Assembly (NCBI GenBank): GCA_963965975.1
Contig: OZ014421.1
Span: 1,121,001 to 1,185,000 of the forward strand
Direction of reading: 5' to 3'
DNA length: 64,000 bases
DNA from: Xestospongia bergquistia
Lineage: Eukaryota; Porifera; Demospongiae; Haplosclerida; Petrosiidae
The notes beneath the pieces are model-generated. The model was given only the letters and a program-made list of their open reading frames with translations. It was not told the DNA's origin and searched no databases. Positions 1-64,000 of this stretch are shown here, one piece after another (the stretch's first letter is position 1; the number at the start of each line of letters is the position of its first letter). The translations under genes were made by a program, and so were the position numbers.

Positions 1-447
1 ATTGCTAGGGATTTCTTCGTAACTGATATAATTATCAAAGCCACAGTTTGCTATTGTTAATGATTTAATTGTAATATTTCTGCTACTACTAAATCGTATA
101 CCAGTTCTGTTGCTATCACTACACATTATGACTGAGGTGGATTGCATAACAGTCTCATGGAAGCCTTGTTCTATATGATCCTGTCCCTGTAGAGTTATAT
201 TACTAACATTGCTGATATTTAATATACCTTGTAAACTATGAGTTTCATTTAGGAAGTAGAAAATGGTATCATCAGTGAAGTAAAACGAATAATCAGCAAC
301 ATAGTAGGAGAGGTTGTAACAAGAAGTGTTATCAGAAGGACAATCTTCTCCATTAGGAGCTGCAGAGACATAATACTCAGAAGCAGTAACATATCCACTG
401 TAGATATACAGTATAACTGATGTTATATAATAGATATGACACCTCAT
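1..447 (-). CDS. BH1: beta-helix/multi-TM receptor-like protein, N-terminal part only (cut by window edge)
   Basis: This is the first 149 codons of a family gene, open without a stop to the left window edge. The start is the ATG at 445-447. It begins MRCHIYYITSV where the paralogues begin MSWCHIYYITSV, so one codon is missing and another altered right after the start. The hydrophobic segment at residues ~5-20 followed by V-T-A-S is a signal peptide. The next part matches the start of the beta-helix in BH3-BH7 (Y-F-L-x-x-T-H, N-I-S-N-V-S-N-I-T-L-Q-G). The 5' flank is class I, shared with BH3: an apparent 59-bp UTR intron lies at 494-552. The rest of the protein lies outside the window, so whether the gene is intact is unknown. 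The role of a cell-surface protein is inferred from the full-length paralogues. Confidence 0.85.
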   Translation of the reverse strand, partial: MRCHIYYITSVILYIYSGYVTASEYYVSAAPNGEDCPSDNTSCYNLSYYVADYSFYFTDDTIFYFLNETHSLQGILNISNVSNITLQGQDHIEQGFHETVMQSTSVIMCSDSNRTGIRFSSSRNITIKSLTIANCGFDNYISYEEIPSN

Positions 448-493
448 AATATAATGTGTCAATATTAATTGATTCTAAAGAAAAAATAATAAC

Positions 494-552
494 CTAAACA
501 AATATGTGTATTAATAAGAAATTATTCATAATATCAATGCAGTATTGCTTAC
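494..552 (-). other. Predicted 59-bp 5' UTR intron of BH1
   Basis: On the minus strand a donor GTAAGC (complement of 547-552) and an acceptor ending TTTGTTTAG (AG at 494-495) bracket 59 bases. The start codon at 447 follows after about 46 bases. BH3 has a donor and acceptor at matching positions, also 59 bases apart. Conservation of both sites in two diverged flanks supports a real intron. No transcript evidence is available. Confidence 0.5.
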
Positions 553-1854
553 TTGTTAAAAGAGGTACACTAGCAGCACAATACCAGTGAACAAATATCA
601 CAATAAGTATAACCTGCAGGCTACAAGTATGTGCAATAGTTTTGATAGTAACATCACATGGCAGCAGTCCATATATTCAATTGAACAGATACACGACTTA
701 AAATCTTTTTTTTAGGAAAAAAACAATCAAAACAATGCTGTTATCAATTAACCACTGACCTACTCCCTATAGTTTGTAATAACATCTGTGGTTGTATCAA
801 AAGACACCCAATCTGATAAAGCAGCTTTGATCATGACAAAGACTGTCATTACTAATGATGTTATTGTAATAACTGTCACACAATATAATACCTTCTTTTG
901 TCTATTGCTTGCAGAACTACTTTTGTGAGGTCAATTTTTGAAGTATATGAACTGTTCATTCAAAATAAGTAATATTTAAAACACTTTGTATTATTAATAT
1001 TGTAGTATATACTCAACCTAAGTGACCACAAATTGATTAAAACTATCAATTTATTTTTATTGTAACAGGACAGTTACTATTAAAACAGCTTTTCTTGATA
1101 AAAATACAAATAGTAATTACCAATTAATTTCTAAAAAACTGATAATCATTCATTGTTAGTATACACTCAGTAAAGTACATGTATAAACATCATATTATCA
1201 AAAATCACATTCTATTAAATATTTTCTAAAGTGTATACATTAACAAAGCGAATATTATTTCAACATTTTACTAATGAAGGAGTTGTGATTTGTATAGAGT
1301 GAGTTTATTGATTAATTTGCATTCTAACATTGAATCCACAGACTTGTACTGTAGTATTCTGTTACTGTTCAAGAATGACGTATAGAAATAGCCATTTTTA
1401 TTTACTTTTACGTTTTTCTGAGATTTGTGAAGTGAGTACATTAAACGTTGTATACCTACTTCTATAAGGTAGATGAAATATAGACTTAAAATTAAATCTT
1501 TATCCGCTTCTCTTTTAATTAGTAGAGAAAACTTCACAACAAATTATATAGTCTGTATATACACCCACTAATTATACCATAATATTGACTGTGATCACCT
1601 TAAATTGTTAATACCACACATGTGTAGTGATAAGCATTCATATGGATGTACAATTATACTGCCTCATAACAATTTTTTTGTTTGAGCCAAAAAACCTAGT
1701 ACAAAATTAGGACTGAATCAAAAGATAACACATGGTTTGTTCCCTTGAGCATGCTCAGTAATCATGTACTAAATATAGAATATAGATGATTAAATTTAGA
1801 ACACAAGTTAAACATAGATCATAACCAAGTCTTACAATAAATTGATAGTTATTT
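553..1854. repeat. BH1 5' flank, class I unit repeat (shared with 11070-12000 and 20043-21490)
   Basis: There is no gene here. The sequence aligns by eye with the flanks upstream of BH2 and BH3, so it belongs to a duplicated unit made of gene plus 5' flank. At about 1300-1670 it contains one copy of a ~300-base dispersed module, recognisable by 'gtattctgttactgttcaag' and 'gtctgtacacccactactaa' like strings, that recurs more than ten times in the window. The 88-codon open frame at 1271-1537 lies inside this repeat and is not supported as a gene. Confidence 0.6.
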
Positions 1855-5570: not shown

Positions 5571-8500
5571 CTAGTCAACTTGATCAAACAGTATTGATTC
5601 TCGTTTCATTTCCATTGATATCACTGTTATAGTAGATTTCCTTTCATCAACTGGATGCATTGAAGGAAGTTCCATATCAATAGGACTAGAAGATGGTGGA
5701 GGTTTATTCAATATCTTTTTGACCTTTGTAATATTGGTTGTAGCCAAACGAGACTTGAAGAGACAATCACAGACATGATAGAACATCAGACGATCCCAGA
5801 CATGGTATAATATAATACCACAGAATACAACAAATGATATTAATACTAAGACAATACTTGACACTTGCCCTTTAAATTTATCTTTATCATTTGAATTTTC
5901 TGCGTTCATATAAGCCATAAAAATGAGGTTAAGAATGAAAAATTCTTCCAGACAAACCAAAGGAAAATGTCGATATATTCCCTTCAAAATGAGATACATG
6001 AAGACAATGATGATTAAAATAGATGTTAACAAATCTAAGCTTACAGTAGTCTCATTGTCTAAAGACACAACCAGTGCTAAGATAACACGAACTAGGAGTA
6101 AAAATCCAGTCCAAAAACGACAATTGTCCTTATATGGACCTCCATATGCATCAAAGAAAGGTTTCATATTTGTTGACAACTTTTGGAAGTAGCACATGTA
6201 CTTTGATAGAGGTCCTTCAAATAATGGTATACTGAGAAGATAAAAGGTGTATGGAATAATAAGTAAAATGAGTACAGTCAGTGAGAATAGGAACAATGAA
6301 AGATGACAACCTTTTAGAAATTGGACATTGGCATCAAAATACCACCTTAGTAATGTTTCTTTTCTCTTGTCATCACCACATGGAATTTCGATGAAATAAA
6401 GGGCCTGGACAACAGTGCGTATTAGTTTTGTATAAGAGAGAAGGATCATAGTTGCTATGACTGGAATTATTTGTCTGCCAACAAGTCGAACCATTTTACT
6501 AGAATATCGTAACAATATTATGATGACTAATAGAATCAACCAAACGTAGACTGGAAAGACAAACTGAAGCCATGCTTTGCTACAAGAATCCATACCATGA
6601 TAGAAACATGTGTTAATACCCAGATCAAGATTGACCCAGGAAATAAACCAACTAAGAAATGGTATAGGGCCTTTAGGAAATAAAATATGTTCATATATTT
6701 TGACAACATTAGCATAGAATATAAGTCCATTGATTGTACCCACAGACACAGTTAAGTTTAAAGTAATGACAAAAGCTATTAATGCTATACCAGCTAAAGC
6801 AAATGGAATGATAAGAGCTACCTGGTCATTAGTACAATTCCCACATTGGTTGGAACCTAACATGAGACTGAATCCTTCATAACATTGTCCACAGAGTACT
6901 CCATCTCGATTATGAAGACATTGTTTGCTATGATAGTTAAGTGTAAAACGAATATTGCTATTATTACAATAATCAAAGGGGCAGTTAGGATAAACAATAA
7001 GACAGTTTGAATCATTTTCATAACCAATCCACATATCACCATCTCTTGTTATAATAAGAGTGTTATTATCACAAGTTATTGAATCTGAATTTAATTCAGA
7101 TCTACAAACACAAGTATCATTTTCTAATGGATACCCATTAGGACAGGGCTCAATAGTAACTTTAATGACTTTAGCATAAGAATCATATAAAGGTTCACTG
7201 ACTGAACTTTCAAGTGTAGCATAGACTTGTGTTGTATTCAATGAAGGATTTGTTATTAACTTGAAAATTATATAAGTACAATTTGCATTTACTCTATTAT
7301 CATTATATTGCACAATGGATGAGTAATCTGATAAATTCAATTTTATCACACCCTCTGTTAAGGTGTCTTTTAGACCAACTGTAGCTAGTGATATGTTGAC
7401 ATCAATTCCTGGTATTGCAATTATACTGATGTCTTTAATAGAACAATTTGGTTCATGTGATTCACAAAAACACACTTGAATAGGATCTGATGTCACTACT
7501 GATAGACCTGTCTGTTGAGGATAATGAAATAGGTGATCAAAGTAAAGTGTGCTTGTACAATCATCAATTTTACCACCATATAGGACATCACCAGATATGT
7601 CAGCTGTATTGTTAACGAAATATAACAGTGTTTTAGTATCATTAGGATAGTGATGAGGAATAACTTTAATGGTGCAATTGGTGGAACTGTTTATATCAAT
7701 AACTTGAGATACAAACATTCCTCCACCTAACACACTGGCATGATTATTGACAAATGATATGTTTGTATTTTGATTTAGTAACAATTGTGAGGAATCGTAT
7801 AAAGCAATAGCTCCACCATAAATGCCTGAATTGTTTACAAACATGTTATGTCCATCAAATGTTATTAGACTATTGTCAGCAACTAAACCAGTTGAGTTAT
7901 GATTACTAACTTCAATTTGATCAAATGTAATATCAGTAATATTGATTAATACCACTGCAGATCGATGTCTGTATTTGTATACATCAGGATTATTTATTAC
8001 TTTATTGAAATGAAATGAAACATTTGTGAAATGAAAGCAATTTTTTGAAGTTGCTTGAAAAGAATGAAGAACCAAACCTGATCCAGCATATGCAGTATTG
8101 TTGGATATAGTGCAGTTACTGAACTCATTGCTACCTCTTTCTGCATACAAAGTAGTGGACACTCCTCCTCCATAATACTGAGCACTATTACAATATATAT
8201 TGCAGTTTATAAACGCAATATTACCTCTTTCTGAGAACTGTTTAATGTACACTCCTCCTCCATTATACTGAGCATTATTCTTGTATATAGCGCAGTTAAA
8301 GAAATTAATATTAATGCTTCCATTGTATGAATGAATTAGGATTCCTCCACCATTATCATACTGAGCAGTATTATTGTATAAAATGCAGTTATTAAACTCA
8401 ATAGTACCATTCCCATACGAAAAAATCTCCACTCCTCTTCCATCATACTGTGCAGTATTGTTGTATAAGGCACAGCTACTAAACTCAATACTGCCATTCC

Positions 8501-10946
8501 CATCTGAATGAATGTCCACTCCTCCTCCATCATACTGTGCAATATTGTTGTATATAGTGCAGCTACTAAACTCAATATTACCATTCCTATGAGAACTAAT
8601 GTCTAATCCTCCTCCTTCATACTGTGCAGTATTGCTGTATATAGTGCAGTTAGTAAACTCAATACTGCCATTCCCATACGAACGAATGTCTGCTCCTCCT
8701 CCATTATACAATGCAGTATTGTTGTATATGGTGCAGTTGCTAAAGTCAATACTGTCATCCCCATATGAATAAAAGTCCACTCCTCCACCATCATACCATG
8801 CAATGTTATTGTATATGGTGCAGTTATTAAACTCAATACTGCCATTCCTGTATGAATGAATGTCCAATCCTCCTCCATCATACCATGCAATGTTATTATA
8901 TATGGTGCAGTTACTAAACTCAATACTGCCATTCCCATACAAATAAAAGTCCACTCCTCCTCCATCATACCATGCAATGTTATTGTATATGGTGCATTTA
9001 ATAAACTCAATACTGCCATCCCCATACGAATGAATGTCCACTCCTCCTCCATCATACCATGCAATGTTATTGTATATGGTGCATTTACTAAGCTCAATAC
9101 TGCCATTCCTATAGGAACGAATGTCCAATCCTCCTCCATCATACTGTGCAGTATTGTTGTATATAGCGCAGTTACTAAATTCAACACTGCCATTCCAATA
9201 CGAACGAATGTCCAATCCTCCTCCATCATACCATGCAATGTTATTGTATATGGTGCAGTTACTAAACTCAACACTGCCAGTCCTATACGAACGAATGTCC
9301 ACTCCTCCTCCATCATACCATGCAGTATTGTTGTATATGGTACAGTTGCTAAAGTCAATACTGCCATTCCTATATGAACGAATGTCCAATCCTCCTCCAT
9401 CATACCATGCAGTATTGTTATATATGGTACATTTGCTAAAGTCAATACTGCCATTCCCATATGAATGAATGTCCACTCCTCCTCCATCATACCATGCAAG
9501 ATTGTTGTATATGGTGCAGCTAATAAACTCAATACTGGCATTCTTGTATGAACGAATGTCCACTCCTCCTCCATCATACCATGCAGAATTGTTGTATATG
9601 GTGCAGTTGCTAAAGTCAATACTGCCATTTTCATACGAATGAATGTCCACTCCTCCTCCATCATACCATGCAGTATTGTTGTATATGGTGCAGCTACTAA
9701 ACTCAACACTGCCATTCCTATATGAACGAATGTCCACTCCTCCTCCATCATACCATGCGGTATTGTTATATATGGTACAGTTGCTAAAGTCAATACTGCT
9801 ATTCCCATATGAATGAATGTCCACTCCTCCTCCATCATACCATGCAAGATTGTTGTATATGGTGCAGCTACTAAACTCAACACTGCCATTCCTATATGAA
9901 CGAATGTCCAATCCTCCTCCATCATACCATGCGGTATTGTTATATATGGTACAGTTGCTAAAGTCAATACTGCCACTCCCATATGAATGAATGTCCACTC
10001 CTCCTCCGTCATACCATGCAAGATTGTTGTATATGGTGCAGTTGCTAAAGTCAATACTGCCATTCCCATACGAATGAATGTCCACTCCTCCTCCATCATA
10101 CCATGCAGTATTGTTATATTTAATGCAGCTACTAAACTCAATACTGTCATTCCTATACGAATAAAAGTCCACTCCTCCTCCATCATACCGTGCAATGTTG
10201 TTGTATATGGTGCAGTTACTAAACTTGATACTGTCATTTCCATTCAAACGAATGTCCAATCCTCCTCCTTTATACTCTGCAGTATTGCTGTGTATAGTAC
10301 AGCTACTAAACTCAATACTGCCATTCCCATATGAATATATGTCCACTCCTCCACCAGACCAAGCAGTATTGTTGTATATAGTGCAGTTACTAAACTCAAT
10401 ACTACCACCTTCACTCAAGCTGATATCCACTCCTCCTCCATACTGAGCAATATTGTTTGAAAACATACTATTTTCAATAATAACATCAGCTTTATTATTA
10501 TTACCATACCACAAAGACATACCATATCCGAAGCCCAGTGAAAAGTTTGATTTCAAAAGAAGAACTCTAGAGAGTCTCTTAAGCTGGTCATCATAGACTA
10601 TTAATGCATTTCCTGAAAATGTCTCACTAGCGCCATTATTAGCAAATGAAGACTTTCTAATTAACAAATTAAAAGCATTAACTAGAACAAGTCCATTACC
10701 TGAACTATTCTGGACTGATACACATTCTAATGTGACAGTATTAATGTCAACAAAGAACAAGCTAACTCTATGATGTAGATACAAGTAAGACCCATAGGGA
10801 TTGCGAGGGATTTCTTGTTCACTGATGTAACTATTAAATCCACAGTTTACTATTGTTAATACCCTCAATGCAACATCACTACTACTAGTAAATCGTATAC
10901 CAGCTCTGTTGCTATCACTACAACTTATTACTGAGGTAGTTTGCAT
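5571..10946 (-). CDS. BH2: giant beta-helix/multi-TM receptor-like protein with ~27 rungs, 5'-truncated
   Basis: From the first in-frame ATG this frame gives 1791 residues, but that Met aligns with residue ~102 of the paralogues. The same frame stays open and homologous for ~45 more codons, up to ~11067, and then hits a stop at 11094-11096 with no upstream ATG. Signal peptide, start and promoter are absent. Residues ~170-960 are about 27 tandem rungs of 29 residues (G-S-I-E-F-S-N-C-T-I-Y-N-N-T-A, then Y-D-G-G-G-V-D-I), against 4-6 in other members. Then come a second beta-rich region, a Cys-rich module with CGQC at ~1352, eight or nine hydrophobic segments at ~1375-1722 including F-F-D-A-Y-G-G-P-Y-K-D, and a tail ending R-E-S-I-L-F-D-Q-V-D. 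There are no internal stops. It is either a very recent pseudogene or a gene using an unseen upstream exon. Confidence 0.8.
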   Translation of the reverse strand: MQTTSVISCSDSNRAGIRFTSSSDVALRVLTIVNCGFNSYISEQEIPRNPYGSYLYLHHRVSLFFVDINTVTLECVSVQNSSGNGLVLVNAFNLLIRKSSFANNGASETFSGNALIVYDDQLKRLSRVLLLKSNFSLGFGYGMSLWYGNNNKADVIIENSMFSNNIAQYGGGVDISLSEGGSIEFSNCTIYNNTAWSGGGVDIYSYGNGSIEFSSCTIHSNTAEYKGGGLDIRLNGNDSIKFSNCTIYNNIARYDGGGVDFYSYRNDSIEFSSCIKYNNTAWYDGGGVDIHSYGNGSIDFSNCTIYNNLAWYDGGGVDIHSYGSGSIDFSNCTIYNNTAWYDGGGLDIRSYRNGSVEFSSCTIYNNLAWYDGGGVDIHSYGNSSIDFSNCTIYNNTAWYDGGGVDIRSYRNGSVEFSSCTIYNNTAWYDGGGVDIHSYENGSIDFSNCTIYNNSAWYDGGGVDIRSYKNASIEFISCTIYNNLAWYDGGGVDIHSYGNGSIDFSKCTIYNNTAWYDGGGLDIRSYRNGSIDFSNCTIYNNTAWYDGGGVDIRSYRTGSVEFSNCTIYNNIAWYDGGGLDIRSYWNGSVEFSNCAIYNNTAQYDGGGLDIRSYRNGSIELSKCTIYNNIAWYDGGGVDIHSYGDGSIEFIKCTIYNNIAWYDGGGVDFYLYGNGSIEFSNCTIYNNIAWYDGGGLDIHSYRNGSIEFNNCTIYNNIAWYDGGGVDFYSYGDDSIDFSNCTIYNNTALYNGGGADIRSYGNGSIEFTNCTIYSNTAQYEGGGLDISSHRNGNIEFSSCTIYNNIAQYDGGGVDIHSDGNGSIEFSSCALYNNTAQYDGRGVEIFSYGNGTIEFNNCILYNNTAQYDNGGGILIHSYNGSININFFNCAIYKNNAQYNGGGVYIKQFSERGNIAFINCNIYCNSAQYYGGGVSTTLYAERGSNEFSNCTISNNTAYAGSGLVLHSFQATSKNCFHFTNVSFHFNKVINNPDVYKYRHRSAVVLINITDITFDQIEVSNHNSTGLVADNSLITFDGHNMFVNNSGIYGGAIALYDSSQLLLNQNTNISFVNNHASVLGGGMFVSQVIDINSSTNCTIKVIPHHYPNDTKTLLYFVNNTADISGDVLYGGKIDDCTSTLYFDHLFHYPQQTGLSVVTSDPIQVCFCESHEPNCSIKDISIIAIPGIDVNISLATVGLKDTLTEGVIKLNLSDYSSIVQYNDNRVNANCTYIIFKLITNPSLNTTQVYATLESSVSEPLYDSYAKVIKVTIEPCPNGYPLENDTCVCRSELNSDSITCDNNTLIITRDGDMWIGYENDSNCLIVYPNCPFDYCNNSNIRFTLNYHSKQCLHNRDGVLCGQCYEGFSLMLGSNQCGNCTNDQVALIIPFALAGIALIAFVITLNLTVSVGTINGLIFYANVVKIYEHILFPKGPIPFLSWFISWVNLDLGINTCFYHGMDSCSKAWLQFVFPVYVWLILLVIIILLRYSSKMVRLVGRQIIPVIATMILLSYTKLIRTVVQALYFIEIPCGDDKRKETLLRWYFDANVQFLKGCHLSLFLFSLTVLILLIIPYTFYLLSIPLFEGPLSKYMCYFQKLSTNMKPFFDAYGGPYKDNCRFWTGFLLLVRVILALVVSLDNETTVSLDLLTSILIIIVFMYLILKGIYRHFPLVCLEEFFILNLIFMAYMNAENSNDKDKFKGQVSSIVLVLISFVVFCGIILYHVWDRLMFYHVCDCLFKSRLATTNITKVKKILNKPPPSSSPIDMELPSMHPVDERKSTITVISMEMKRESILFDQVD
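8070..10430 (-). repeat. 87-bp coding tandem repeats (beta-helix rungs) in BH2
   Basis: About 27 head-to-tail units of 87 bases encode 29-residue rungs. In the middle (about 9370-10080) the units alternate between two variants, one with R-S-Y-R-N then G-S-V-E-F, the other with H-S-Y-G-N then G-S-I-D-F. This gives a second period of 174 bases and shows duplication of unit pairs. Units near both edges are more diverged, as expected for unequal exchange in the centre. The period is a multiple of three, which keeps other frames open as well and explains the long shadow frames here. Confidence 0.95.
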
Positions 10947-11076: not shown

Positions 11077-11093
11077 GTCCATTGTTTATAGTA

Positions 11094-16221: not shown

Positions 16222-19200
16222 CTAGTCATCTTGATCAAACAATATTGATTCTCGTTCTATTTCCATTGACAACACTGACATTGAAATAGATCTCCTTTCA
16301 ACATCAGGTGATCCAGGATGTATTAAAGGAAGTTCAATATCATTAGAACTAGAATATGGTGGAGGCTTCTTGAAAATATTCTTCACTTTTGTAATTGGTT
16401 GTTGCACATGAGATTTTAATAGACAATCCCAGATATGATAGAACATCAGACGATCCCAGACATGATAAAATATAATACCACAGAATACTACAAATGATAG
16501 TGATACTAAAACAATACTTGACATTTGGCCTTTTAATTGATCAGTGTCATTTGAAGTTCGTACATTCATATAAGCCATAAACAAGAGGTTAAGAATGAAA
16601 AATTCTTCCAGACAGCCCAAAGGAAAATGTCGATATATTCCTTTAGAAATGTAATGCATGAAGATAATGACAATTAGAAGAGATGTTAACACATCCAGGC
16701 TTTTAGTAGACTTAGTATCTAAAGACACAACCAGTGATAAGATAACACGAACTAATAGTAAAAATCCAGTCCAAAAACGGAACTTGTCCTTATATGGACC
16801 TCCATATGCATCAAAGAAAGGCTTCATATATGTTGAAAACTTTTTGCAGCAACACATGTACTTTGATAGAGGTCCTTCAAATAATGGTATACTAAGAAGG
16901 TAGAAGGTGTATGGAATAATAAGTAAAATGAGTACAGCCAGTGAGAACAAGAACAATGGTATATGACATCCTCTGAAATATTGGACATTAGCATCAACAT
17001 ACCACCTCAATAATGAGACAGTATTATTCTTATCATCAGTACATGGAATTTTGGTATAATAAAAAGCTTGGAAAACTGTGCGTATCAGTTTAGTGTAAGA
17101 AAGAAGGATCATTGTGGCCAGGACTGGAATTGCTTGCCTTCCAACAAGTCGAACTGCTTTGCTAGAATATCGTAATAATATTATAATAAATATTACAATA
17201 AACCAAACATAGGCTGGAAAGACAAATTGAAGCCATGTTTTACTACAAGAGTCCATCTTATGATAGAAACAAGTCTTAATACCTAGATCTAGATTGATCC
17301 AGGAAATAAACTGACTAAAAAAATCGACAGGGTGTTTAGGAAAGAAGATGGGTTCGTATATTTTGACAACATTAGCATAGAATATAAGTCCATTGATTGT
17401 ACCCACAGATACTGTTAAGTTTAAAACAATAACAAAAGCTACCAGTGCTATACCAGCTAAGGCAAATGGAATGATAAGAGCTATGTTGCCATTAGTACAT
17501 TGTCCACATTGATCGGAACCTAATATGAGACTAAATCCTTCAGCACATTGTCCACAGAGTACACCAGATCGATTAAGAAGACATTGTTTGCTAGGATAGT
17601 GAAGTATAAAGCTAATATTACTGTCATTACAATAATGGAAGGGGCAGTTAGGATAAACAATAAGACAGTGTGAATTATTGTCATAACCAATCCACATATC
17701 ACCATCTCTAGTTATAATTTGAGTGTTAATATCACAATTTATGGGAGCTAAATTTAATTCAGGTCTGCAAACACAAATGCCATTTACTAATGGAAAACCA
17801 TTAGGACAGGGCTTGATAGTAACTTCAATGACCTTTGCATAAGGATCATATAAAGGATCACTAATTGAATTATTAAGTGTAACATATACTTGTGTTTTGT
17901 TTGATGAAGAGTTTGTTCTTAATGTGAAAGTTATGTCAGTACAAATTGTAATTAGTCTATTGTTAATATTTTGAACAAAAGATGAACTGTCTGATGAGCT
18001 CAATTTTATTGCACCTTGTGTTAAACCATCTAAAGTACCTACTGTAGCTAGTGATACATTAATATCAATTCCAGGTGTTGGAAATATACTGTTGTTTGTA
18101 ATAGAGCAATTAGGCTTATTTAATTCACAAAAGCATACTTGAATAGGATCTGATGACACTGTTGATAGACCTGTCTGTTGAGGATAGTGAAATAGGTGAT
18201 CAAAGTAAAATGTGCTTGTACAATCATCAATTTTACCACCATATAGGACATCACCAGATATGTCAGCTTTATTGTTAACAAAATATAATACTGTTTTAGT
18301 ATCATTACAATCATGATAAGGAATAACTTTAAAGGAACAATCAGGTACAATGTCTACACCAAGAACTTGATCATGATATACAAAGATTCCTCCTCCTGAC
18401 TTACTGGCATGATTATTGATAACTGTAATGTTTGCATTCTCATTTATTAATAATTGTGAGTAATCATATAAAGCAATACCTCCACCATAAATACCTGAAT
18501 TGTTTACAAACATGTTATGTTTATCAAATGTTATTAGACTATTGTCCCCAAGTAAACCAGTTGTATTATGATTACTAACTTCAAGTTGAGTAAATGTAAC
18601 ATTAACAATGTTTAACAATGTGATAACAGATCGATGTCCATTTTGTTGTGCAACTGGCCTATTAAATACTTTATTGAAATGAAATGAAACATTTGTGAAA
18701 TGAAAGCTACTTGTTGAAGTTGATTGGAAAGAACGGAGAACCAAACCTGATGCATAGTATGCAGAATTGTTTGATATAGTGCAGTTACTGAACTCAATAC
18801 TACCACTTTCTGCATATGAAATAATGTAAATTCCTCCTCCATTAGATTCAGCAGTATTATCATATATATTACAGTCAATAAACTCAATAGTACCACCTTC
18901 TGATGAATATATTATCACTCCTCCTCCATTCACTTCAACAGCATTGTTGTATATATAGCAGCTACTAACATCAATACTGCCATTTCTATAGGATCCAATA
19001 TACACTCCTCCTCCTTTCAAAGCAATATTGTTGCATATGGTACTGTCACTAAGGTCAATACTACTTTTCCCATATGATCCAATATAAATTCCACCTCCAA
19101 ACTTAGCAGTATTGTTGGATATAGTGCAGTTACTAACCTCAATATGGCCTCCTCCATTCAAGACAATACGCATTCCTCCTCCAGACCAAGCATTATTATT

Positions 19201-36990: not shown

Positions 36991-36999
36991 AATTATATT

Positions 37000-41860: not shown

Positions 41861-42840
41861 CATTGAAATAAGCCATAAACATGAGGTTAATAATGAAGAA
41901 TTCTTCCAGACAGCCCAAAGAAAAACGTCGATATATTCCCTAAAAAATATAATGTATGAAGATAATGACAATTAGAAGAGATGTTAACACATCCAAACTG
42001 ACAATAGCATCAGAATTTTGAGACACAACCAGTGCTAAGATAACACGAATAAGGAGTAAGAATCCAGTCCAAAAACAATACTTGTCTTTATATGGACCTC
42101 CATATGCATCAAAGAAAGGCTTCATATACGTTGACAACTTTTGACAGCAACACATATATTTTGATAGAGGTCCTTCAAATAATGGTATAATAAGAAGATA
42201 GAAAGTGTATGGAACAATAAGTAAAATAAGTACAACCAGTGAGAACAGGAACAATGGTATATGACAACCTCTTAGATATTCGATATTAGCATTAATGTAC
42301 CACCTAAGTAATAAGACAGTATTATTCTTACTATCAGTACATGAAATTTGTTTGGAATGAGACTGAATCCTTCAGCACATTGTCCATACCAGCATACCAG
42401 ATTGTGAAGACATTGTTTGCTGGGATAGTGAAGTGTAAAACTTATATTACTGTATATGAATATTAATAAGTAAGACAGTATATGACAATATATATTGACT
42501 AAAAGAAAAATGGATTACGTTGGATTACAGGCTAAGTCACACAATCCATATTTATATTGCAATCAAATGTTACAATGGACTATGGTCAATGGACTAACAC
42601 TTACTAAACTAGTGTTATTATGTACTGCATAAGACATGTTAAAAATATGTCCATACAAATACACATATTTAGTACAATGTGGAAAACAATTTATATCAAT
42701 TTTGTACAAGAGATAAAGATCATAGTGGTTAGTACTGAAATTGTCTGTCTTCCTACAAATTGAACACTGTATTGGAATAATCCAGTAATATTATGATGAT
42801 TATTAGGAGAGCCCAAACATAACCTGGAAAGATAAACATT
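41861..42840 (-). pseudogene. Scrambled BH pseudogene (transmembrane and Cys-rich fragments out of order)
   Basis: Three pieces of a family gene are visible on the minus strand. 41861-42351 encodes later transmembrane segments, including F-F-D-A-Y-G-G-P-Y-K-D, and is broken by a stop at 41940-41942. 42352-42450 encodes the Cys-rich module with CGQC mutated to Y-G-Q-C. 42690-42835 encodes the third and fourth transmembrane segments in decayed form. Piece two is joined to piece one with the intervening ~280 codons missing, and piece three lies outside the normal order. 42455-42690 is dispersed repeat. It begins and ends exactly in 3'-flank type repeats. Confidence 0.85.
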
Positions 42841-46200: not shown

Positions 46201-46938
46201 GCTAATCATTACATCAGGTGCACTATCATGATCACACCACAAATACATGCCTTGTCCAAAGCCTAATGTAAAATTTGATTTCACAATTTTAACTTGGGGT
46301 TGTCTTCTAAGTGGGTTAATATAAACAATTAATGCATTGCCTGAAAACACCTCATGACCTCCATTATTAGCAAATGAGGAATTAACAATTAACACATCAT
46401 AAGCATTAACTAGAACAAGTCCATGATTTGAATCATTTTGGACTGATACCCATTCTAATGTCACACTATCGATGTCAACAAGGTATAAACTAACATTATA
46501 ATGTCGATAGACTCGATACCAGGTGAATCCACAGTTTGCTATTGTTAACATTTTCAAGTCAATTTCAGTACTACTAGTAAATTGTATACCAGTTCTGTGC
46601 TTATTACTACACCTTATTACTGATGTAGATTGCATTACTGTCTCATGGAATCCTTGTTCTAAATGACCCAGTCCCTGTAGAGTTATATTACTTACATTGC
46701 TGATATTTAATATACCTTGTAGAATATGAGTTCCCTCTAGGAAGTAGAAGACTGTATCATTAGTGAAGTAAGATGAATAATTAGCAACATAATAAGAGAG
46801 ATTGTAACATGTTAGGTTATAAGAAAAACAAGATTCTTCGTTAGGAGCTGCGGAGACATAATACTCAGAAGCAGTAACATATCCACTGTAGATATACAGT
46901 ATAACTGATGTTATATAATAGATATGACACCAACTCAT
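43207..46938 (-). CDS. BH6: beta-helix/multi-TM receptor-like protein, complete
   Basis: Single exon, 1243 residues, starting MSWCHIYYITSV with a signal peptide to V-T-A-S. Five regular rungs lie at ~266-399, the Cys-rich module with CGQC at ~798, hydrophobic segments at ~819-1169, and a tail ending R-E-S-I-L-F-D-Q-D-D. The coding sequence is nearly the same as BH3 over most of its length, including the Y-N-G-H-R-S-V-I-T-L-L type segments and the whole Cys-rich module. The upstream region, however, is class II and matches BH5 and the orphan copy. Identity with BH3 stops within a few bases of the start codon. It also differs from BH3 by a short insertion (extra Y-R-V-type residues near residue 140). 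A surface receptor or adhesion role is inferred from topology. Confidence 0.92.
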   Translation of the reverse strand: MSWCHIYYITSVILYIYSGYVTASEYYVSAAPNEESCFSYNLTCYNLSYYVANYSSYFTNDTVFYFLEGTHILQGILNISNVSNITLQGLGHLEQGFHETVMQSTSVIRCSNKHRTGIQFTSSTEIDLKMLTIANCGFTWYRVYRHYNVSLYLVDIDSVTLEWVSVQNDSNHGLVLVNAYDVLIVNSSFANNGGHEVFSGNALIVYINPLRRQPQVKIVKSNFTLGFGQGMYLWCDHDSAPDVMISNSMFSSNYAWFGGGMAIILNGGGHIEVSSCTISNNTAKFGGGIYIGLYGKSSIVLSDSTICNNIALKGGGVYIVSYRNGSIDISNSYIYNNTVEVNGGGVIIYSSGSGTIEFIGCTIYINTAESDGGGIYIIPYEESGSIEFSNCTISNNSAYYSSGLVLRSFQSTSTTSFHFTNVSFHFNKVFNRPVAQQNGHRSVITLLNIVNVTFTQLEVSNHNTTGLLGDNSLITFDKHNMFVNNSGIYGGGIALYDYSQLLINKNANITFINNHASKSGGGVFVYHDEVLGVDIVPDCSFKVIPYHDCNDTKTVLYFVNNKADISGDVLYGGKIDDCTSTLYFDHLFHYPQQTGLSAVSSDPIQVCFCELNKPNCSITNNSIFSTPGIHINVSLAAVGALDGLTQGAIKLSSSDNSSVVQNNNNRLITICTDITFTLRTNSSSNTTQVYVTLNNSISDPIYDPYAKVIEVTIKPCPNGFPLVNGICVCRPELNAASITCDINTQIITRDGDMWIGYDNNSHCLIVYPNCPFHYCNDSSISFILHYPSKQCLLNRSGVLCGQCAQGFSLILGSNQCGQCTNNYIALIIPFALAGIALVAFVIVLNLTVSVGTINGLIFYANVVKIYEPIFFPKHPVNFFSQFISWINLDLGIKTCFYHNMDSCSKMWLQFVFPAYVWFIVISIIILLRYSSKAVRLVGRQAIPVLATMILLSYTKLIRTVFQAFYYTKIPCTDDKNNTVSLLRWYVDANVQYFRGCHIPLFLFSLAVLILLIVPYTFYLLTIPLFEGPLSKYMCCCKSFSTYMKPFFDAYGGPYKDKCRFWTGFLLLVRLILALVVSLDTEATKSLDVLTSLLIVIIFMYHILKGIYRHFLLGFLEEFFILNLIFMAYFNVQTSNNNDKLKGQVSSIVLVSISFVVFCGIILFHVWDRLMFYHVWDCLLKSHLLQPITKVKNIFKNPPPPSSSNDIKLPLIHLGSSDVERRSVSMSIVSLEMERESILFDQDD

Positions 46939-47190
46939 AACGGCGGCGTGTTTAACTGTAGGTGAATGAAATAATATGGAGTTGACTTTATAGCCTCAAA
47001 ATCAACTTCTAGTTGATCTAGATTTTCTTACTTTTATCAATCTTTATCAAACAGATCTCAATTAAAAGTCGATTGATGTACGAAAGATCGTTATGGACTG
47101 CCTTTTATATAAAACACTATACGCTAATGTTTATTTTAATCGTCTACTTCGAAGTTTAAAGAACGGCACGTGGCGGTAACAACCGTAACA
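46939..47190 (-). promoter_or_regulatory. Class II promoter of BH6
   Basis: Minus-strand TATATAAAAGG lies at 47101-47111 (about 165 bases above the start), CACGTG at 47167-47172, and TTCGAA near 47148-47153. The order and spacing match BH5. The sequence down to the start codon is shared with the orphan promoter at 37000-37290. Confidence 0.65.
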
Positions 47191-48720
47191 TCATCTAAAA
47201 TCATTTGTTTTTCTCATTATTATTGATAACTTAACAATACTCTCAGAAGTAAGAGCAATATAATATATATACTAATATGGCACTGTTGTCTATACATCGA
47301 GGAAACCATAGAGCTACATTTCTTCACTAAATAAATAATTTATTAACTTGTAGTCTGTACACCCACTACTAATTATACATGCTGTTATACTATATTATTG
47401 ACTGTGATAACATTAAAAGATTGCTTTGTGTCATATCTCTGTTATGATAACCATTTACATGTACATGAAGTAAGAAGTGATATGTATCATTTGTAATTGT
47501 AAAGTAATTCATCACTACATGTATGTAAACATTAACAGTTTGTTATAAAATAAATTGGAAATTTAAAAAATTAACATATTTACAAGCTAACAATAACACA
47601 ACAAATGGAGCATTGTATAAAACAATTGTTGAGACAATACAATTATCTTATTATTCTTACTATACTACTATTATATATAAGATATAACAATTATATGAAT
47701 GATATGTAATCAGTAAATGTTGTTTGAAATAACACTGATGGTCAATTCCAAAATACATTAATAATGAAAACATTATGTTGTTTACTTTTTGGTTCTAATA
47801 AGTTTACTAAATCCATCCAGTATAACCATATATTGATTAAATAAGCCAATTAATCTTTATAGTATGACTATTAAACAAATACTATTATAGTATTATATCA
47901 TATTAATGTGAATTTGAAAAACACAAACATTAACTGTTTATTAAAATAGAAAAGATAACTTTTAAATTAATACACTCACTAGTTACAATAACAAAGTAAA
48001 TAGAACATTGTATAAAATAATTGTTGAGACAATATAATTATCTTACTACACTACATATATCTACATTTATATCTATATATATCACATGTCTGCTGTGATA
48101 AGCAGCTATATAGAGCATGAGGTGACCTGTACATTATTTATGATTGTCAAGTGATCTGTCATAAGACACACATAAACATTAACTGTTTATTATATTAGAA
48201 ATAATAACTTTACAATGAATATGCTGACTATCTAACAATAACACAATAAATAGAACACTATATAATCTAATTGTTAAGACAATACAATTATCTTATTATT
48301 CTTACTACACCAATATTAAATATAAGATATAACAATTATATTGAATGACACGTAATCACTAAGTGTTAATCAATGGCTTTTGTGATACCTGTAGCTTAAG
48401 AACATGAGTTGATGATGACAACAAGTTCGTTTAAGGTTGTTCAATATGATTATGTCATCAAGTGCTATTGAGGTACTTCAAAAACATAAAATAACTGTAA
48501 CGTCATGACAGCTAGTATTGTGTAGGTATCTGAAGAAGCTAATATCAAGTGTCATTAGCTCAAAAAGGAGAGATGACTATCTCATCTAGTACTATTGAGA
48601 TATCTCAATAATACAAGATAATTGTAACATCTAGCAAATCAAGTAAACATAGTAGCATATATGTAGTGTAGAATAACAGTAAATTAATAATGCACATTAA
48701 GGAGCATTTGAAAAACACAA
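47191..48720. repeat. Upstream duplicated block, copy c
   Basis: Third copy of the block at 35411-36990 and 37291-38690, with the gene-less 3'-end relic at ~47705. No gene. The block ends near 48700, where a short piece of its own interior is repeated (a second copy of the 'aaacattaactgtttattaa' segment at ~48718). Confidence 0.65.
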
Positions 48721-50279
<1,559 letters not shown>

Positions 50280-53896: not shown

Positions 53897-56800
53897 CTAG
53901 TCATTAAGTTCAAACAGTAATGATTCTCTTAGCATATCCATTGACAACACTGACATCGAAGCAGTTTTACTTTCAACTATATTTGAACACTTTATACCAT
54001 CGGAACGAAAAGATGGCGGAGACTTCTTAAATTTTTTCTTGATTTTTGCAATTGTTTTGAATGAATGCGATTTTAACAGACGATCCCAAATATGATAGAG
54101 TATAACACTACAAAACACAACAAATGCTGCAAATATTAAAATATAACTTATCACGTGTCTTTTGGGTTTCTCAGATGCTGGTAGATTCATATAAGCCACT
54201 AACACAAGGTTAAGAATAAAAAAGTTTTCAAGACAAGCCAAAGAAAAATGTCGATATATTCCCTTCAAAAGGAAAAACATGAAAATAATAGCAACTAAAA
54301 TAGATGTTAACACATCCAAGCTTACAGTACCCTCAGTATCTAAAGACACAACCAGTGCTAAGATAACACGAACTAGGAGTAAAAATCCAGTCCAAAAACG
54401 ACACTTGTCTTTATATGGACCACCGTATGCATCGAAGAAAGGCTTCATATATGTTGGCAACTTTTGACAGCAACACATGTACTTTGATAGAGGTCCTTCA
54501 AATAATGGTATAGTAAGAAGGTAGAAGGTGTATGGAACAATTAGTAAAATGAGTATAGCCAGTGAGAACAGGAACAATGGTAGATGACAACCTCTTGAAA
54601 ATTGGACATTAGCATCAATATACCACCTCAGTAATAAGACAGTATTATTCTTATCGTCAGTACATGGAATTTTGGTAGAATAAAGAGCATGGAAAACAAT
54701 GCGTATCAGTTTAGTGTAAGAGAGAAGGATCATAGTGGCTAATACTGGAATTGCTTGTCTTCCAATAAGACGAACAACTCTGCTAGAATAACGTGATAAT
54801 ATTATGATAAGTATTAGAATAAACCAAACATATACTGGAAAAATAAACTGTAGCCATGCTTTACTGCAAGAACCCATCCCATCAATAAAACAAGTCTCAA
54901 TACCCAGATCTAGATTGATCCATGAAATTAACCAACTAAGAAATGGTATGGGACCATTAGGAAAGAAGAATTGTTCATATATTTTGACAACATTAGCATA
55001 GAATATAAGTCCATTCATTGTACCCACAGACACAGTTAAGTTTAAAACAATAACAAAAGCTACCAGTGCTATACCAGCTAAAGCAAATGGAATAATAAGA
55101 GCTATGTTGTCATTAGTACATTTTCCACATTGATTGGTACCTAACATGAGACTGAATCCTTCAGAACATTGCCCACAGAGTATACCAGCTCGATTATGAA
55201 GACATTGTTTGTCATGATAGTTAAGTGTGAAACTAACGTTACTGTTATTACAATAATCAAAGGGGCAGTTAGGATAAACAATAAGACAGTTTGAGTCATT
55301 TTCGTAACCAATCCACATATCACCAAATCTAGTTATAATTTGAGTTTTACTATTGCAAGTTATTAAAGGTGAATTTAATTCAGAACTACAAACACATGTA
55401 CCACTCACCAATGGAAATCCACTTGGACAGGACTCAATATTAATTTTAATTAATTTAGCATAAGGATCATTAAAAGGTTCACTGACTGAACTTTGAAGTG
55501 TAACATAGACTTGTGTTATGTTCAATGAAATGTTTATCTCTAATGTGAAAGTTACATTAGTGCAATTTGCATTTATTTTATTAGTTTGAACTTTTGATGA
55601 GCTATCTGATGTCAGCTTTATTACACCCTCTGTTGTGCCATTTTGTAGACCAACTGTAGCTAGTGATATGTTGACATCATGCCCAGGTTTTGCAAATTTA
55701 ATGATGTTTGTAATAGAGCAATTAGGTCTATTTAATTGACAAAAACACACACGATTAGGATCTGATGACACTGCTGATAGACCTGTCTGTTGAGGATAGT
55801 GAAATAGGTGATTAAAGTAAAGTGTGCTTGTACAATTATCAATTTTACCACCATATAAGACATCACCAGATATGTCAGCTTTATTATTGACAAAATATAA
55901 CACTGTTTTAGTATCATTAGGATCATGATAAGGAATAACTTTAAAGGAATAATTAGAGGTGGTATCTACACCAAAAATTTGTGATATAAAGATCCCTCCA
56001 CCTGACTCACTGGCATGATTATTGATAAATGATATGTTTGTATTCTGTTTTAGCAATAGTTGAGAGGATTTGTATAAAGCAATACCTCCACCATAAATAC
56101 CTGAATTGTTTACAAACATGTTATGTCCATGAAATGTTATTAGACTATTTTCAGCAACTAAACCAGTTGTGTTATGATTACTAACATCAATATGGTCAAA
56201 CATAACATTATTAACATTGATTAATACCACAGCAGCTTGATATCCTTTTTGATGTATATCAAAGTTATTAATTGCTTTATTGAATTGAAGTGAAACATTT
56301 ATGAAAAGGAACCTTCTTGTTGAGGCTCCTTGATCTGAATGGAGAAGCAAACCTGATGCAAAGTGCGCAGTGTTGTTGTATATAGTGCAGTTACTGAAAT
56401 CAATAATACCATTTACTGTATAAAAGTAAATGCATTCTCCTCCTCCATCAGACTGAGCAATATTATCATATATGTTGCAGCTAATAAACTCAATAGTACC
56501 GCTTATTGTGAACAAGCCAATGTACACTCCTCCTCCATCATATTGGGCAGTATTATTGAATATATTGCAGTTAATAAACTCAATATCACCACTTACTGTT
56601 AACGAACCAACGTACATTCCTCCTCCATCATCATACTGGGCAGTATTATTGTATATATTGCATTTAATAAACTCAATGCTAACGTTTCTTGTGAACAAAT
56701 CCATGTACAATCCTCCTCCATCATATTCAGCTACATTATTGTATATATTGCAGTCACTAATATCAATATTGACATTCTTAAGCAAATTAATATACATTCC

Positions 56801-57652
56801 TCCTCCAATCCAAGCACTATTGTTGTATATAATGCAATTACTTATATTAATACTACCACCATTACGTAAGATAATATTCAGTCCTCCTCCATGCCAAGCA
56901 TTATTGTGCGAAAACATACTATTTTCAATGATTAAATCAGCTACATTATCATTAATATACCACAAATACATGCCACTTCCTAAGCCGAGAGTAAAATTTG
57001 ACCTCACAATTTTTACTCTGGAAGGTGTTCTAAGCCTATCATTATTGATAATTAACGCGTTGGCAGCAATTGCTTCATGAGCTCCATTATTAGCAAATGA
57101 AGAATTAACAATTAACACATCATAAGCATTGTAAATAACGAGTCCATAACCTGAACTATTCTGGACTGATATACATTCTAAAGTGACATTTTTGATGTCA
57201 ACAAAGTATAAGCTAATGATATAATATCGATTCAAGTTAAACTCACAGTTTGCTATTGTTAATGATTTTAAGACAACATTATTACTACGAGCAAAGTTTA
57301 TGATAGATCTTTTGCTATAAGGACACCTTATTACTGAGGTAGATTGCATAACTGTCTCGTGAAAACCTTGTTCTACATGACCCAGTCCCTGTAGAGTTAT
57401 ATTACTTACGTTGTTGATCTTCAATATACCTCGTAGAGTATGAGTTCCCTCTAGGAAGTAGAAGACTGAATTATCAGTGAAGAAAGATGCGCTATCAGCA
57501 ATATAATAGGAGAGTTTGTGACAAGGTAACTGATCAGAGGAACAAGACTGTCCATTAGGAGCTGCAGAGACATAATACTCAGAAGCAGTAACATATCCAC
57601 TGTAGATATACAGTATAACTGATGTTATGTAATAGATATGACACCAGCTCAT
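53897..57652 (-). CDS. BH7: beta-helix/multi-TM receptor-like protein, complete
   Basis: Single exon, 1251 residues, starting MSWCHIYYITSV with a signal peptide to V-T-A-S. Six regular rungs lie at ~257-430, several with an extra residue (31 instead of 29), so this ectodomain is longer than BH3-BH6. The Cys-rich module has CGQC at ~826 and C-G-K-C after it. Hydrophobic segments span ~847-1190, again with F-F-D-A-Y-G-G-P-Y-K-D. The tail is the most diverged of the complete members (it lacks the V-W-D duplication and the P-P-P-P-S-S-S segment is altered) but still ends R-E-S-L-L-F-E-L-N-D. Class II promoter. Ligand and signalling partner are unknown. Confidence 0.92.
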   Translation of the reverse strand: MSWCHIYYITSVILYIYSGYVTASEYYVSAAPNGQSCSSDQLPCHKLSYYIADSASFFTDNSVFYFLEGTHTLRGILKINNVSNITLQGLGHVEQGFHETVMQSTSVIRCPYSKRSIINFARSNNVVLKSLTIANCEFNLNRYYIISLYFVDIKNVTLECISVQNSSGYGLVIYNAYDVLIVNSSFANNGAHEAIAANALIINNDRLRTPSRVKIVRSNFTLGLGSGMYLWYINDNVADLIIENSMFSHNNAWHGGGLNIILRNGGSINISNCIIYNNSAWIGGGMYINLLKNVNIDISDCNIYNNVAEYDGGGLYMDLFTRNVSIEFIKCNIYNNTAQYDDGGGMYVGSLTVSGDIEFINCNIFNNTAQYDGGGVYIGLFTISGTIEFISCNIYDNIAQSDGGGECIYFYTVNGIIDFSNCTIYNNTAHFASGLLLHSDQGASTRRFLFINVSLQFNKAINNFDIHQKGYQAAVVLINVNNVMFDHIDVSNHNTTGLVAENSLITFHGHNMFVNNSGIYGGGIALYKSSQLLLKQNTNISFINNHASESGGGIFISQIFGVDTTSNYSFKVIPYHDPNDTKTVLYFVNNKADISGDVLYGGKIDNCTSTLYFNHLFHYPQQTGLSAVSSDPNRVCFCQLNRPNCSITNIIKFAKPGHDVNISLATVGLQNGTTEGVIKLTSDSSSKVQTNKINANCTNVTFTLEINISLNITQVYVTLQSSVSEPFNDPYAKLIKINIESCPSGFPLVSGTCVCSSELNSPLITCNSKTQIITRFGDMWIGYENDSNCLIVYPNCPFDYCNNSNVSFTLNYHDKQCLHNRAGILCGQCSEGFSLMLGTNQCGKCTNDNIALIIPFALAGIALVAFVIVLNLTVSVGTMNGLIFYANVVKIYEQFFFPNGPIPFLSWLISWINLDLGIETCFIDGMGSCSKAWLQFIFPVYVWFILILIIILSRYSSRVVRLIGRQAIPVLATMILLSYTKLIRIVFHALYSTKIPCTDDKNNTVLLLRWYIDANVQFSRGCHLPLFLFSLAILILLIVPYTFYLLTIPLFEGPLSKYMCCCQKLPTYMKPFFDAYGGPYKDKCRFWTGFLLLVRVILALVVSLDTEGTVSLDVLTSILVAIIFMFFLLKGIYRHFSLACLENFFILNLVLVAYMNLPASEKPKRHVISYILIFAAFVVFCSVILYHIWDRLLKSHSFKTIAKIKKKFKKSPPSFRSDGIKCSNIVESKTASMSVLSMDMLRESLLFELND

Positions 57653-60570: not shown

Positions 60571-60573
60571 GCG

Positions 60574-60627: not shown

Positions 60628-60678
60628 TTCTGTTGGACTTCTTTGTATCAAAATGAGTATTCACGACTTTAGTATAGT

Positions 60679-62622: not shown

Positions 62623-62634
62623 CTTTTGTTGATT

Positions 62635-62750
62635 TAAAATTACAGCTCCTAAGCTAATTTGACATAATCTAGTTTCTTCCATGCAGCTTCTGAAATGATG
62701 CTTCCTTTGACTTCAATGATAGTGCTCCAAGATGAGTTCGACTGTAAAAT
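62635..62750 (-). mobile_element. Small fragment of the Ty3/gypsy gag fossil
   Basis: It aligns with 22425-22530 of copy 3 and ~3265-3370 of copy 1 ('agctcctaagctaatttgac', 'gatagtgctccaagatgag'). Only about 115 bases remain. Confidence 0.65.
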
Positions 62751-63681
62751 GACTGTAAGTAAAATATAGTATTAGATTTACATGTAATGTTTTATTGTAT
62801 GTATTGTTTTTATTTAATAATTTATGTTTATACATAGGATTAGAAATGGTAAAGTCACACAGATAAGTGTGTGATGGGGTTGGGGCTCCATTTTTTATAT
62901 AGTACTTGGCATATTTCTCCTGGCATATGCATTATTAAGTAGAGACTGTAAGCCCAGTGGGGTATTGTGGAGGATTGAAGATATATATATATATATGTAT
63001 TTACTAGGAAGAAAACATTTTACTGATAGATGAGTTATGGTTTGTATGATGAGAGTTTTGTTTGTTAATTTATATTTTAACATTTAATGCTGAGACTGTA
63101 GTATTCTGTTACTGTTCAAAAATACTGTATAAAAGACATAAATCATTCAATGGTCATACACTTTACATTCTTCTGACAATTGGTCAACTGAGTACATAAC
63201 ATTATAATCTTACTTCTATGATATAGTTGAAATAATAGATACGTATACTGGCTTAAAATCTAATCTTCAGCCACTCCTCTTTTAACTAGTAGTGAAAATG
63301 ATCAAATAGTTTGTACACTCACTACTAATCATTGATCATATTATTGACTATGATCACCTTAAAATATTATGTTATGTGCTTGTTGCCATAAGCAATGACA
63401 TGGTGAGTCAGGTTTTAAGTGACTTGTCCTCTTTTTGTAGATATCAAAATGTCTGTCACTAGATGCACATAAATATTAACCATTTATTATAATTGAAAAG
63501 CTGACTTCAAAACTAATACTTGTTAGCTAATAACAACATGTAAACGTATAATGTCACACTTGAATAAGTCAAATTGTTAAAGAGTACAATTTATTATTAT
63601 TCTTACTACATTGTAATACATATAGGACGTGAAAGCTATACATGTAATCAGCAAATGTTGTCAGAATCAGCAGCACTAGTA
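62751..63681. repeat. BH8 3' flank with repeats
   Basis: ~62920-63100 is a decayed copy of the ~370-base repeat, ~63090-63400 the dispersed module, and 63400-63681 the conserved 3' flank leading to the BH8 stop codon. No gene. Confidence 0.55.
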
Positions 63682-64000
63682 CTAGTCATTTTGATCAAAC
63701 AGCATTGATTCTCGTCTCATTTCCACTGACGCCATTGACAAAGCACTAGATGTCTTTTCATCACCAGGGGATACTGGATGCACTGAAGGAAGTTCCATAT
63801 CATTAGAAGTAGCAGGTGGTGGAGGTTTCTTAAAACTCTTCCTGACTTTTGTAATTGGTTGTTGCAAACGAGACTTTAACAATCGATCCCAGACACCGTA
63901 GAATATCAGACGATCCCAGACGTGATAAAATATAATACCACAGAATACAACAAATGATATTGATACTAAAACAATACTTGACACTTGTCCTTTTGAATTG
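63682..64000 (-). CDS. BH8: beta-helix/multi-TM receptor-like protein, C-terminal part only (cut by window edge)
   Basis: About 106 codons are open to the right edge. They encode G-Q-V-S-S-I-V-L-V-S-I-S-F-V-V-F-C, the last transmembrane segment of the family, the V-W-D duplication, a Pro-rich stretch (K-K-P-P-P-P), and a tail ending R-R-E-S-M-L-F-D-Q-N-D. The stop is in the usual position. It is closest in this segment to BH3, BH4 and BH6. The start and ectodomain lie beyond the window. Confidence 0.88.
   Translation of the reverse strand, partial: NSKGQVSSIVLVSISFVVFCGIIFYHVWDRLIFYGVWDRLLKSRLQQPITKVRKSFKKPPPPATSNDMELPSVHPVSPGDEKTSSALSMASVEMRRESMLFDQND

What the first reader, a model, noticed from the sequence alone, without database searches (positions are those of the whole stretch)
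1..64000. Tandem array of intronless beta-helix, Cys-rich, multi-TM surface proteins
Eight family members plus at least two broken copies sit in one orientation. The architecture joins a right-handed beta-helix ectodomain, as known from pectate-lyase-like folds and bacterial polymorphic membrane proteins, to eight or nine transmembrane segments and a conserved acidic tail. That combination does not match any receptor class I can name. Tandem copies, variable ectodomains and a conserved membrane block fit a recognition or adhesion family, but the role is an inference.
Basis: partly seen in the sequence, partly recalled or inferred. Interest (0 to 1): 0.75.

Follow-up and report, generated by a model that had tools for sequence, protein, structure and literature searches.

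The report
Giant sponge surface-receptor gene family
A stretch of what looks like a sponge genome is filled with closely related one-piece genes for surface proteins that join a ladder-like outer rod to a nine-pass membrane core, part of a family of more than a hundred copies that may let the animal sense what touches its cells.

Summary
The window carries eight members of one family on the minus strand: five complete single-exon genes, one long frame lacking its signal peptide, two cut by the window edges; plus one decayed fragment. Complete proteins have a signal peptide, a right-handed beta-helix ectodomain (PF13229), a Cys-rich module, nine hydrophobic segments and a tail ending like RESLLF. 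The family is genome-wide: one membrane motif occurs 151 times (reversed control 0). Three Wnt loci, two nuclear receptors and no innexin match fit a sponge (yardstick recalled). Neighbours are mosaics: g32 pairs with g24 in its coding region but with g43 upstream. Ectodomains diverge faster than the membrane core, but dN/dS averages below 1 in every region and only 2 of 1205 sites reach P 0.9 for positive selection. I read it as a large contact- or ligand-sensing receptor family. The nearest described architecture is that of cysteine repeat modular proteins of alveolates; homology to them was not tested.

The parts
16..441 (-). N-terminus of left-edge family member (gene continues outside, open frame 1560 aa in the genome)
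   Evidence: tblastn 74% over residues 4-145
5571..10946 (-). g6: 1791-aa frame with a greatly lengthened beta-helix; lacks signal peptide and about 60 N-terminal residues
   Evidence: PF13229 E=1.8e-40
8365..10407 (-). 23.5 tandem 87-bp units in g6 = 29-aa beta-helix coils
   Evidence: Tandem Repeats Finder; direct repeats; 21 coils of exactly 29 aa
16222..19947 (-). g16: complete 1241-aa member
18313..19650 (-). g16 beta-helix region (about residues 100-545)
   Evidence: PF13229, 3 stretches, best 101-235; outer limits judged from the alignment
17479..17697 (-). g16 Cys-rich module before the membrane block: eight Cys at 98-100% of 47 members
   Evidence: weak DUF7630 match, below cut-off
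16468..17478 (-). g16 nine-segment membrane block
   Evidence: hydropathy averaged over 47 members
16225..16467 (-). g16 cytosolic tail with the terminal x[RQ][ED][STPA][LIMT][LIM][FYLDEC] motif
   Evidence: motif in 47 of 47 members, basophilic [RK]R[ED][ST] form in 32 of 47
23684..27310 (-). g24: complete 1208-aa member
31554..35162 (-). g32: complete 1202-aa member, coding region paired with g24
35100..38600 (-). g32 5' end and upstream DNA, paired with g43 upstream (mosaic junction near 35 kb)
   Evidence: sliding blastn; self blastn
41859..42768 (-). decayed copy: three pieces of the Cys-rich and membrane part in three frames
43207..46938 (-). g43: complete 1243-aa member, coding region paired with g16
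46950..48700 (-). g43 upstream DNA paired with g32, not g16
53897..57652 (-). g54: complete 1251-aa member
63685..63993 (-). C-terminus of right-edge member (split between two frames outside the window)

Best explanation
Each intact gene is a single coding exon for a cell-surface receptor. Shown by sequence: a signal peptide, an ectodomain dominated by a right-handed beta-helix with a variable number of about 29-residue coils rich in N-glycosylation sequons, a Cys-rich module, a nine-segment membrane core that changes slowest, and a tail with a conserved terminal motif. Inferred: the helix is a glycosylated rod held outside the cell that binds ligands (microbial, food or neighbour-cell surfaces); binding is relayed through the Cys-rich module into the nine-pass core and its conserved inner loop (FDAYGGPYKDKxRFWTG, between segments 5 and 6), and the tail's RES site is a switch for phosphorylation or trafficking. 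The sequence pattern shows that neighbouring copies share flanking DNA and are mosaics, so that upstream regions and coding regions have been exchanged between neighbours; I infer tandem duplication with unequal exchange, giving a large repertoire with reassorted expression, as in other big receptor families.
For: Architecture. Family size: 151 exact matches of one membrane motif and 138 of another, reversed controls 0; 75 of the 87 scored matches lie in open frames of at least 1000 aa (count); 884 first-look candidates, of which 87 were scored. Coding function kept: ratio of mean dN to mean dS 0.35-0.64 by region. Outside exposure: 25-82 sequons per ectodomain, 1.9-2.7 times the shuffled number in 14 of 14 proteins, against 1-5 in the shorter membrane part, for which no shuffle was made; Cys 143, 151, 219 and 244, present in 47 of 47 members, fall in loops or loop edges that the nine-segment model puts outside. 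Variation: 2 to 33 GG[GA] repeats per ectodomain; within g6 coils, G1-3, D5, C19, N24, A26 and Y28 are fixed in 21 of 21 while positions 7, 10, 18, 25 and 27 vary most. Mosaics; dS within pair g24-g32 differs between regions (0.063 vs 0.176, Fisher P 0.001, one of four uncorrected tests, the others 0.045, 0.008 and 0.001; from counts). A published protein class with a Cys-rich module plus nine segments acts in contact-triggered secretion.
Against: No ligand, expression or localisation data. No structure model. dN/dS below 1 in every region on average and only 2 of 1205 sites with P>=0.9 for positive selection, which is not what a rapidly co-evolving recognition surface would be expected to show, although between-paralogue tests have little power under recombination. 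Three of nine segments are weak (second, fourth and eighth). The divergent member L049 keeps Cys 143 and 219 but lacks 151 and 244, so the outer Cys pairing is not general. No known signalling domain in the tail. The core might instead be a transporter or channel.
Confidence: 0.5

Rival explanations
1. Adhesion or self/non-self (allorecognition) family: the beta-helix rods of neighbouring cells bind each other or the matrix, and the membrane block is mainly an anchor.
For: Rod of variable coil number and many sequons, tandem mosaic array, ectodomain and rungs more diverged than core.
Against: A nine-segment core with dN/dS about 0.35 and a terminal tail motif in 47 of 47 members is more than an anchor needs; 2 of 1205 sites at P>=0.9 for positive selection; no population data.
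Confidence: 0.2
2. Transporter or channel: the nine-pass core moves a solute or ion and the beta-helix is a substrate-gathering or gating cap.
For: Conservation is highest in the membrane core and Cys module; nine segments do not fit a classical seven-pass receptor.
Against: No transporter or channel family match that stands above chance in Pfam, NCBIfam or PDB sequence searches (one permease chain at E=1.1).
Confidence: 0.15
3. Selfish element: a multicopy intronless ORF carried by a transposon or virus.
For: Intronless, multicopy, on nine contigs.
Against: Same-strand tandem array with homologous intergenic DNA; no open frame of 150 aa or more in the window outside the genes (the plus-strand frames at 8856 and 56457 are antisense inside g6 and g54); dN/dS well below 1; no relative found in viral or prokaryotic contigs (each limited to two peptide patterns). 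Terminal repeats and target-site duplications were not searched for.
Confidence: 0.05
4. Bacterial or symbiont DNA, or recent gene transfer of polymorphic-membrane-protein-like genes.
For: PF13229 rings in 8 of 14 control genomes, the eight named being prokaryotes; weak Chlam_PMP matches; no introns.
Against: Sits in a 7.25-Mb contig of a genome with Wnt and nuclear-receptor genes on other contigs; no relative of the membrane block was found in the prokaryote collection by a scan with two peptide patterns; no autotransporter match.
Confidence: 0.04

Closest known systems
Cysteine repeat modular proteins (CRMPs) of Apicomplexa and ciliates
   Same: Large ectodomain, Cys-rich (EGF-like or ephrin-receptor-like) module by the membrane core, nine predicted transmembrane segments in Toxoplasma and Plasmodium, N-terminus outside and C-terminus inside for TgCRMPa; expanded in Chromera and Paramecium; a figure legend lists a parallel beta-helix repeat among CRMP domains (PMC9670195 passages; PMC9815656 passages and sections 6 and 11 part 1).
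   Different: Two to four CRMPs in many parasites, with kringle, lectin-like or other ectodomains and cytosolic tails of 478 and 565 aa in Toxoplasma; five segments predicted for Tetrahymena CRMPs. Here more than a hundred single-exon copies with a beta-helix ectodomain and tails of about 80 aa. Sequence homology was not tested here.
Chlamydial polymorphic membrane proteins (Pmp) and the Pmp-like proteins of Trichomonas (the latter recalled)
   Same: Beta-helix of repeated coils with GGA and FxxN motifs (abstract start of PMC11166332 in the listing); weak PF02415 matches.
   Different: Pmps are autotransporters (same abstract); here a nine-segment hydrophobic membrane block and no autotransporter match.
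Adhesion GPCRs
   Same: Large modular ectodomain plus multi-pass core; contact sensing as a working idea (drawn for CRMPs in PMC9670195).
   Different: Nine rather than seven segments; no GPS/GAIN or 7tm match.
Vertebrate olfactory receptors (recalled)
   Same: Single coding exon, tandem arrays, many copies, pseudogenes, mostly purifying selection.
   Different: No large ectodomain; no sequence relation known to me; not compared here.

Membership tests
PF13229 Beta_helix | Profile match over the curated cut-off | tested here: met
   5 of 6 window proteins over 25.9 bits; g54 at 23.0
CRMP | Nine transmembrane segments, N-out/C-in | tested here: inconclusive
   Nine hydrophobic segments, three weak; topology from Cys, sequon and charge pattern only
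CRMP | Cys-rich ephrin-receptor-like or EGF-like module before the membrane core | tested here: inconclusive
   Eight-Cys module present, but DUF7630 below cut-off (best E 0.004) and PF07699 not listed for these proteins
CRMP | Sequence homology of the membrane core | not testable with these tools
   No CRMP sequence was at hand; structure prediction off; PMC9815656 states that no homolog had a solved structure
CRMP | Role in regulated exocytosis after contact | not testable with these tools
   Needs experiments
Adhesion GPCR | GPS/GAIN domain and seven-pass core model | tested here: not met
   No such match in Pfam scans at E up to 1 or 5
Chlamydial Pmp | PF02415 repeats and C-terminal autotransporter domain | tested here: not met
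   PF02415 below cut-off (best 19.4 vs 20.6 bits); no autotransporter match; hydrophobic segments instead
Beta-helix enzymes (pectate-lyase-like) | Match to an enzyme family | tested here: not met
   In Pfam only the generic PF13229 and sub-threshold models matched; NCBIfam gave only far-below-cut-off matches, for g6

The most novel reading that the evidence does not exclude
This is a major, undescribed sensory or recognition receptor class of sponges: well over a hundred (perhaps several hundred) intronless nine-pass receptors with beta-helix ectodomains, whose arrays reassort promoters and coding regions by unequal exchange, and whose core shares an ancient origin with the CRMP contact sensors of alveolates.
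Probability: 0.3. Interest if true: 0.82.

Novelty: new variant of a known kind. Interest (0 to 1): 0.56.

Why it matters
How nerveless, filter-feeding sponges tell food, symbionts, pathogens and kin apart is largely open. A single-exon surface family with at least 151 copies of one core motif, a common nine-segment core and length-variable outer rods is a concrete, testable candidate repertoire. If the core proves homologous to CRMPs, a contact-sensing module known from parasites and ciliates would extend to animals.

Tried and rejected
Rejected: transposon or virus (no mobile-element-like open frame in the window, homologous flanks of tandem copies, purifying selection); bacterial origin of the whole protein; enzyme reading; strong positive selection on the ectodomain. 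The likelihood gain for allowing beta above alpha (2 delta lnL 9.40) is not claimed as positive selection because recombination and repeat misalignment can inflate it.

Led nowhere: PDB sequence searches with the membrane block, the full-length alignment, the 34-row alignment A3 and the g6 ectodomain (no hit, except one at E 1.1); viral contigs and genome-contig scans; NCBIfam (far-below-cut-off matches for g6, none for the other three). Ten literature searches, eight of them aimed at this family (all but 32 and 38), listed nothing that I recognised as a description of it; the lists are capped at 14-40 rows and I saw titles and abstract starts only. In three sponge papers the terms tried gave no mention of it (one search showed 12 of 19 places). 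The library holds open-licence papers only, so this does not show absence from print. An upstream alignment showed a short shared leader before the ATG in many copies and splice-acceptor-like sites in a few; not pursued.
Full report
WHAT IS THERE. The window is C11:1121001-1185000 of a 146-Mb, 21-contig genome. It holds six minus-strand frames of 1202-1791 aa. With g16 as query, tblastn finds those six, an N-terminus at the left edge, a C-terminus at the right edge and a decayed copy near 41.9-42.5 kb; a masked search adds a further scrap of that decayed copy at about 42.7 kb and one trace at 5.3 kb with E 0.02. Five genes are complete. g6 lacks the signal peptide and about 60 residues. The right-edge gene is split between two frames outside the window. 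Besides these genes, one search lists as frames of 150 aa or more only an overlapping minus-strand frame and an antisense frame inside g6 and an antisense frame inside g54.

ORGANISM. Three Wnt loci (nine matches), two nuclear-receptor DNA-binding domains and no innexin match were found. This is the content I recall for demosponges such as Amphimedon; the yardstick is recalled, and the innexin search rang nowhere, controls included, so its output says that it does not show absence. I could not name the species.

PROTEIN. Pfam gives PF13229 in 6 of 6 proteins, 5 of 6 over the cut-off. g6 has 23.5 tandem 87-bp units; 21 coils are exactly 29 aa, with G1-3, D5, C19, N24, A26 and Y28 fixed in 21 of 21 and the strongest variation at positions 7, 10, 18, 25 and 27; over all coil positions dN is 0.13 and dS 0.32. 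Sequons number 25-82 per ectodomain, 1.9-2.7 times the shuffled expectation in 14 of 14 proteins examined (one of them, L009, cut short), against 1-5 in the membrane part. The membrane block, averaged over 47 distinct members, has nine hydrophobic segments, three of them weak, eight Cys at 98-100% in the module before it, and Cys 143, 151, 219 and 244 in 47 of 47, in loops or loop edges that a nine-segment N-out model places outside. Against this, the divergent member L049 keeps 143 and 219 but lacks 151 and 244. The stretch FDAYGGPYKDKxRFWTG between segments 5 and 6 is the longest near-invariant run, on the inner side in this model. The tail ends in x[RQ][ED][STPA][LIMT][LIM][FYLDEC] in 47 of 47 members, and has a basophilic [RK]R[ED][ST] in 32 of 47; reading this as a kinase site is inference.

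FAMILY. One search scored 87 of 884 first-look candidates; all 87 match at 67-100% identity, 2 of 87 with a stop inside the match, and 75 of 87 lie in open frames of 1000 aa or more (count). One exact motif occurs 151 times (63 forward, 88 reverse), another 138 times, with reversed controls at 0; decayed copies can be among them. A divergent member (42% identical to g16 in the core) brings in further subfamilies on C1, C10 and C13, most of them in single frames above 1100 aa, three of those on C1 with stops inside. Three loci carry DUF7630 over its cut-off in frames of 704-1240 aa and may be more distant relatives; I could not read them.

EVOLUTION. Among 12 full-length genes (66 pairs), the ratio of mean dN to mean dS is 0.57 in the N-terminal ectodomain, 0.64 in the rungs, 0.51 in the C-terminal ectodomain, 0.37 in the Cys module, 0.35 in the membrane block and 0.58 in the tail; mean dS is 0.42-0.56 in all regions but the hard-to-align rungs (0.70). 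The core is therefore kept by selection on protein rather than by gene conversion alone. A site model on 1205 codons put one rung site and one tail site at P>=0.9 for positive selection and 331 sites at P>=0.9 for negative selection (summing its six regions). So the ectodomain is less constrained, not clearly under diversifying selection.

MOSAICS. Along g32, identity to g24 is 85-98% in 300-bp steps from 31.5 to 35.1 kb (in the last of these g16 is slightly closer), but in the step at 35.1 kb it falls to 69% while g43 gives 90%; further upstream to 38.6 kb g43 is the partner at 88-96% in all full-length steps. Along g43, g16 is the coding partner (89-98%) and g32 the upstream partner (92-97% from 47.0 to about 48.7 kb), where g16 has only scraps of 66 bp or less. 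The protein tree of 47 cores pairs g24 with g32 and g16 with g43 at full support and groups several arrays by place; g24 and g32 fall outside the group that holds the other members of their own array (midpoint root). Intergenic DNA is homologous between copies. This is what unequal crossing-over or conversion in a tandem array would leave, and it moves upstream regions between genes.

WHAT IT WORKS LIKE, AND WHAT IT IS. A Cys-rich module with nine segments is the published core of apicomplexan CRMPs, proposed sensors that trigger rhoptry discharge in Toxoplasma, with many members in Chromera and Paramecium (PMC9670195: passages; PMC9815656: passages and sections 6 and 11 part 1). Tetrahymena CRMPs are given five predicted segments, so the count varies in that family. 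I recall similar uncharacterised multi-pass blocks in cnidarians and other eukaryotes; no call tests that. Membership is therefore not claimed. Adhesion GPCR and chlamydial Pmp membership were tested by profile and not met.

VERDICT. Its role is inferred. The strongest new facts are its genome-wide size, the nine-segment model with conserved outer Cys and tail motif, the sequon-dense coil ladder, and the mosaic exchange of upstream and coding regions.

Noticed in passing
G000 C11:133850, 139946, 146042 (+): Three members 6096 bp apart with the same frame length, the same beta-helix scores and almost the same core scores (742.5, 742.5, 743.1 bits): a very recent tandem triplication or an assembly artefact.
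   Followed up: no
window upstream of ATGs; L009, L075, L077: A short leader just before the ATG is shared by many copies, and a few have pyrimidine-rich AG sites there, so a 5'UTR intron is possible in some members.
   Followed up: partly
   Followed up: partly
G000 C2:12102919-12105027 (-): The best PF13229 match of the genome lies in a cluster of short frames, some with stops, unlike the family's long frames.
   Followed up: no
window 41187-41859: Direct repeat of a 343-bp unit (1.9 copies, 91%) abutting the decayed copy; related sequence also occurs near 15.3-15.9 kb.
   Followed up: no
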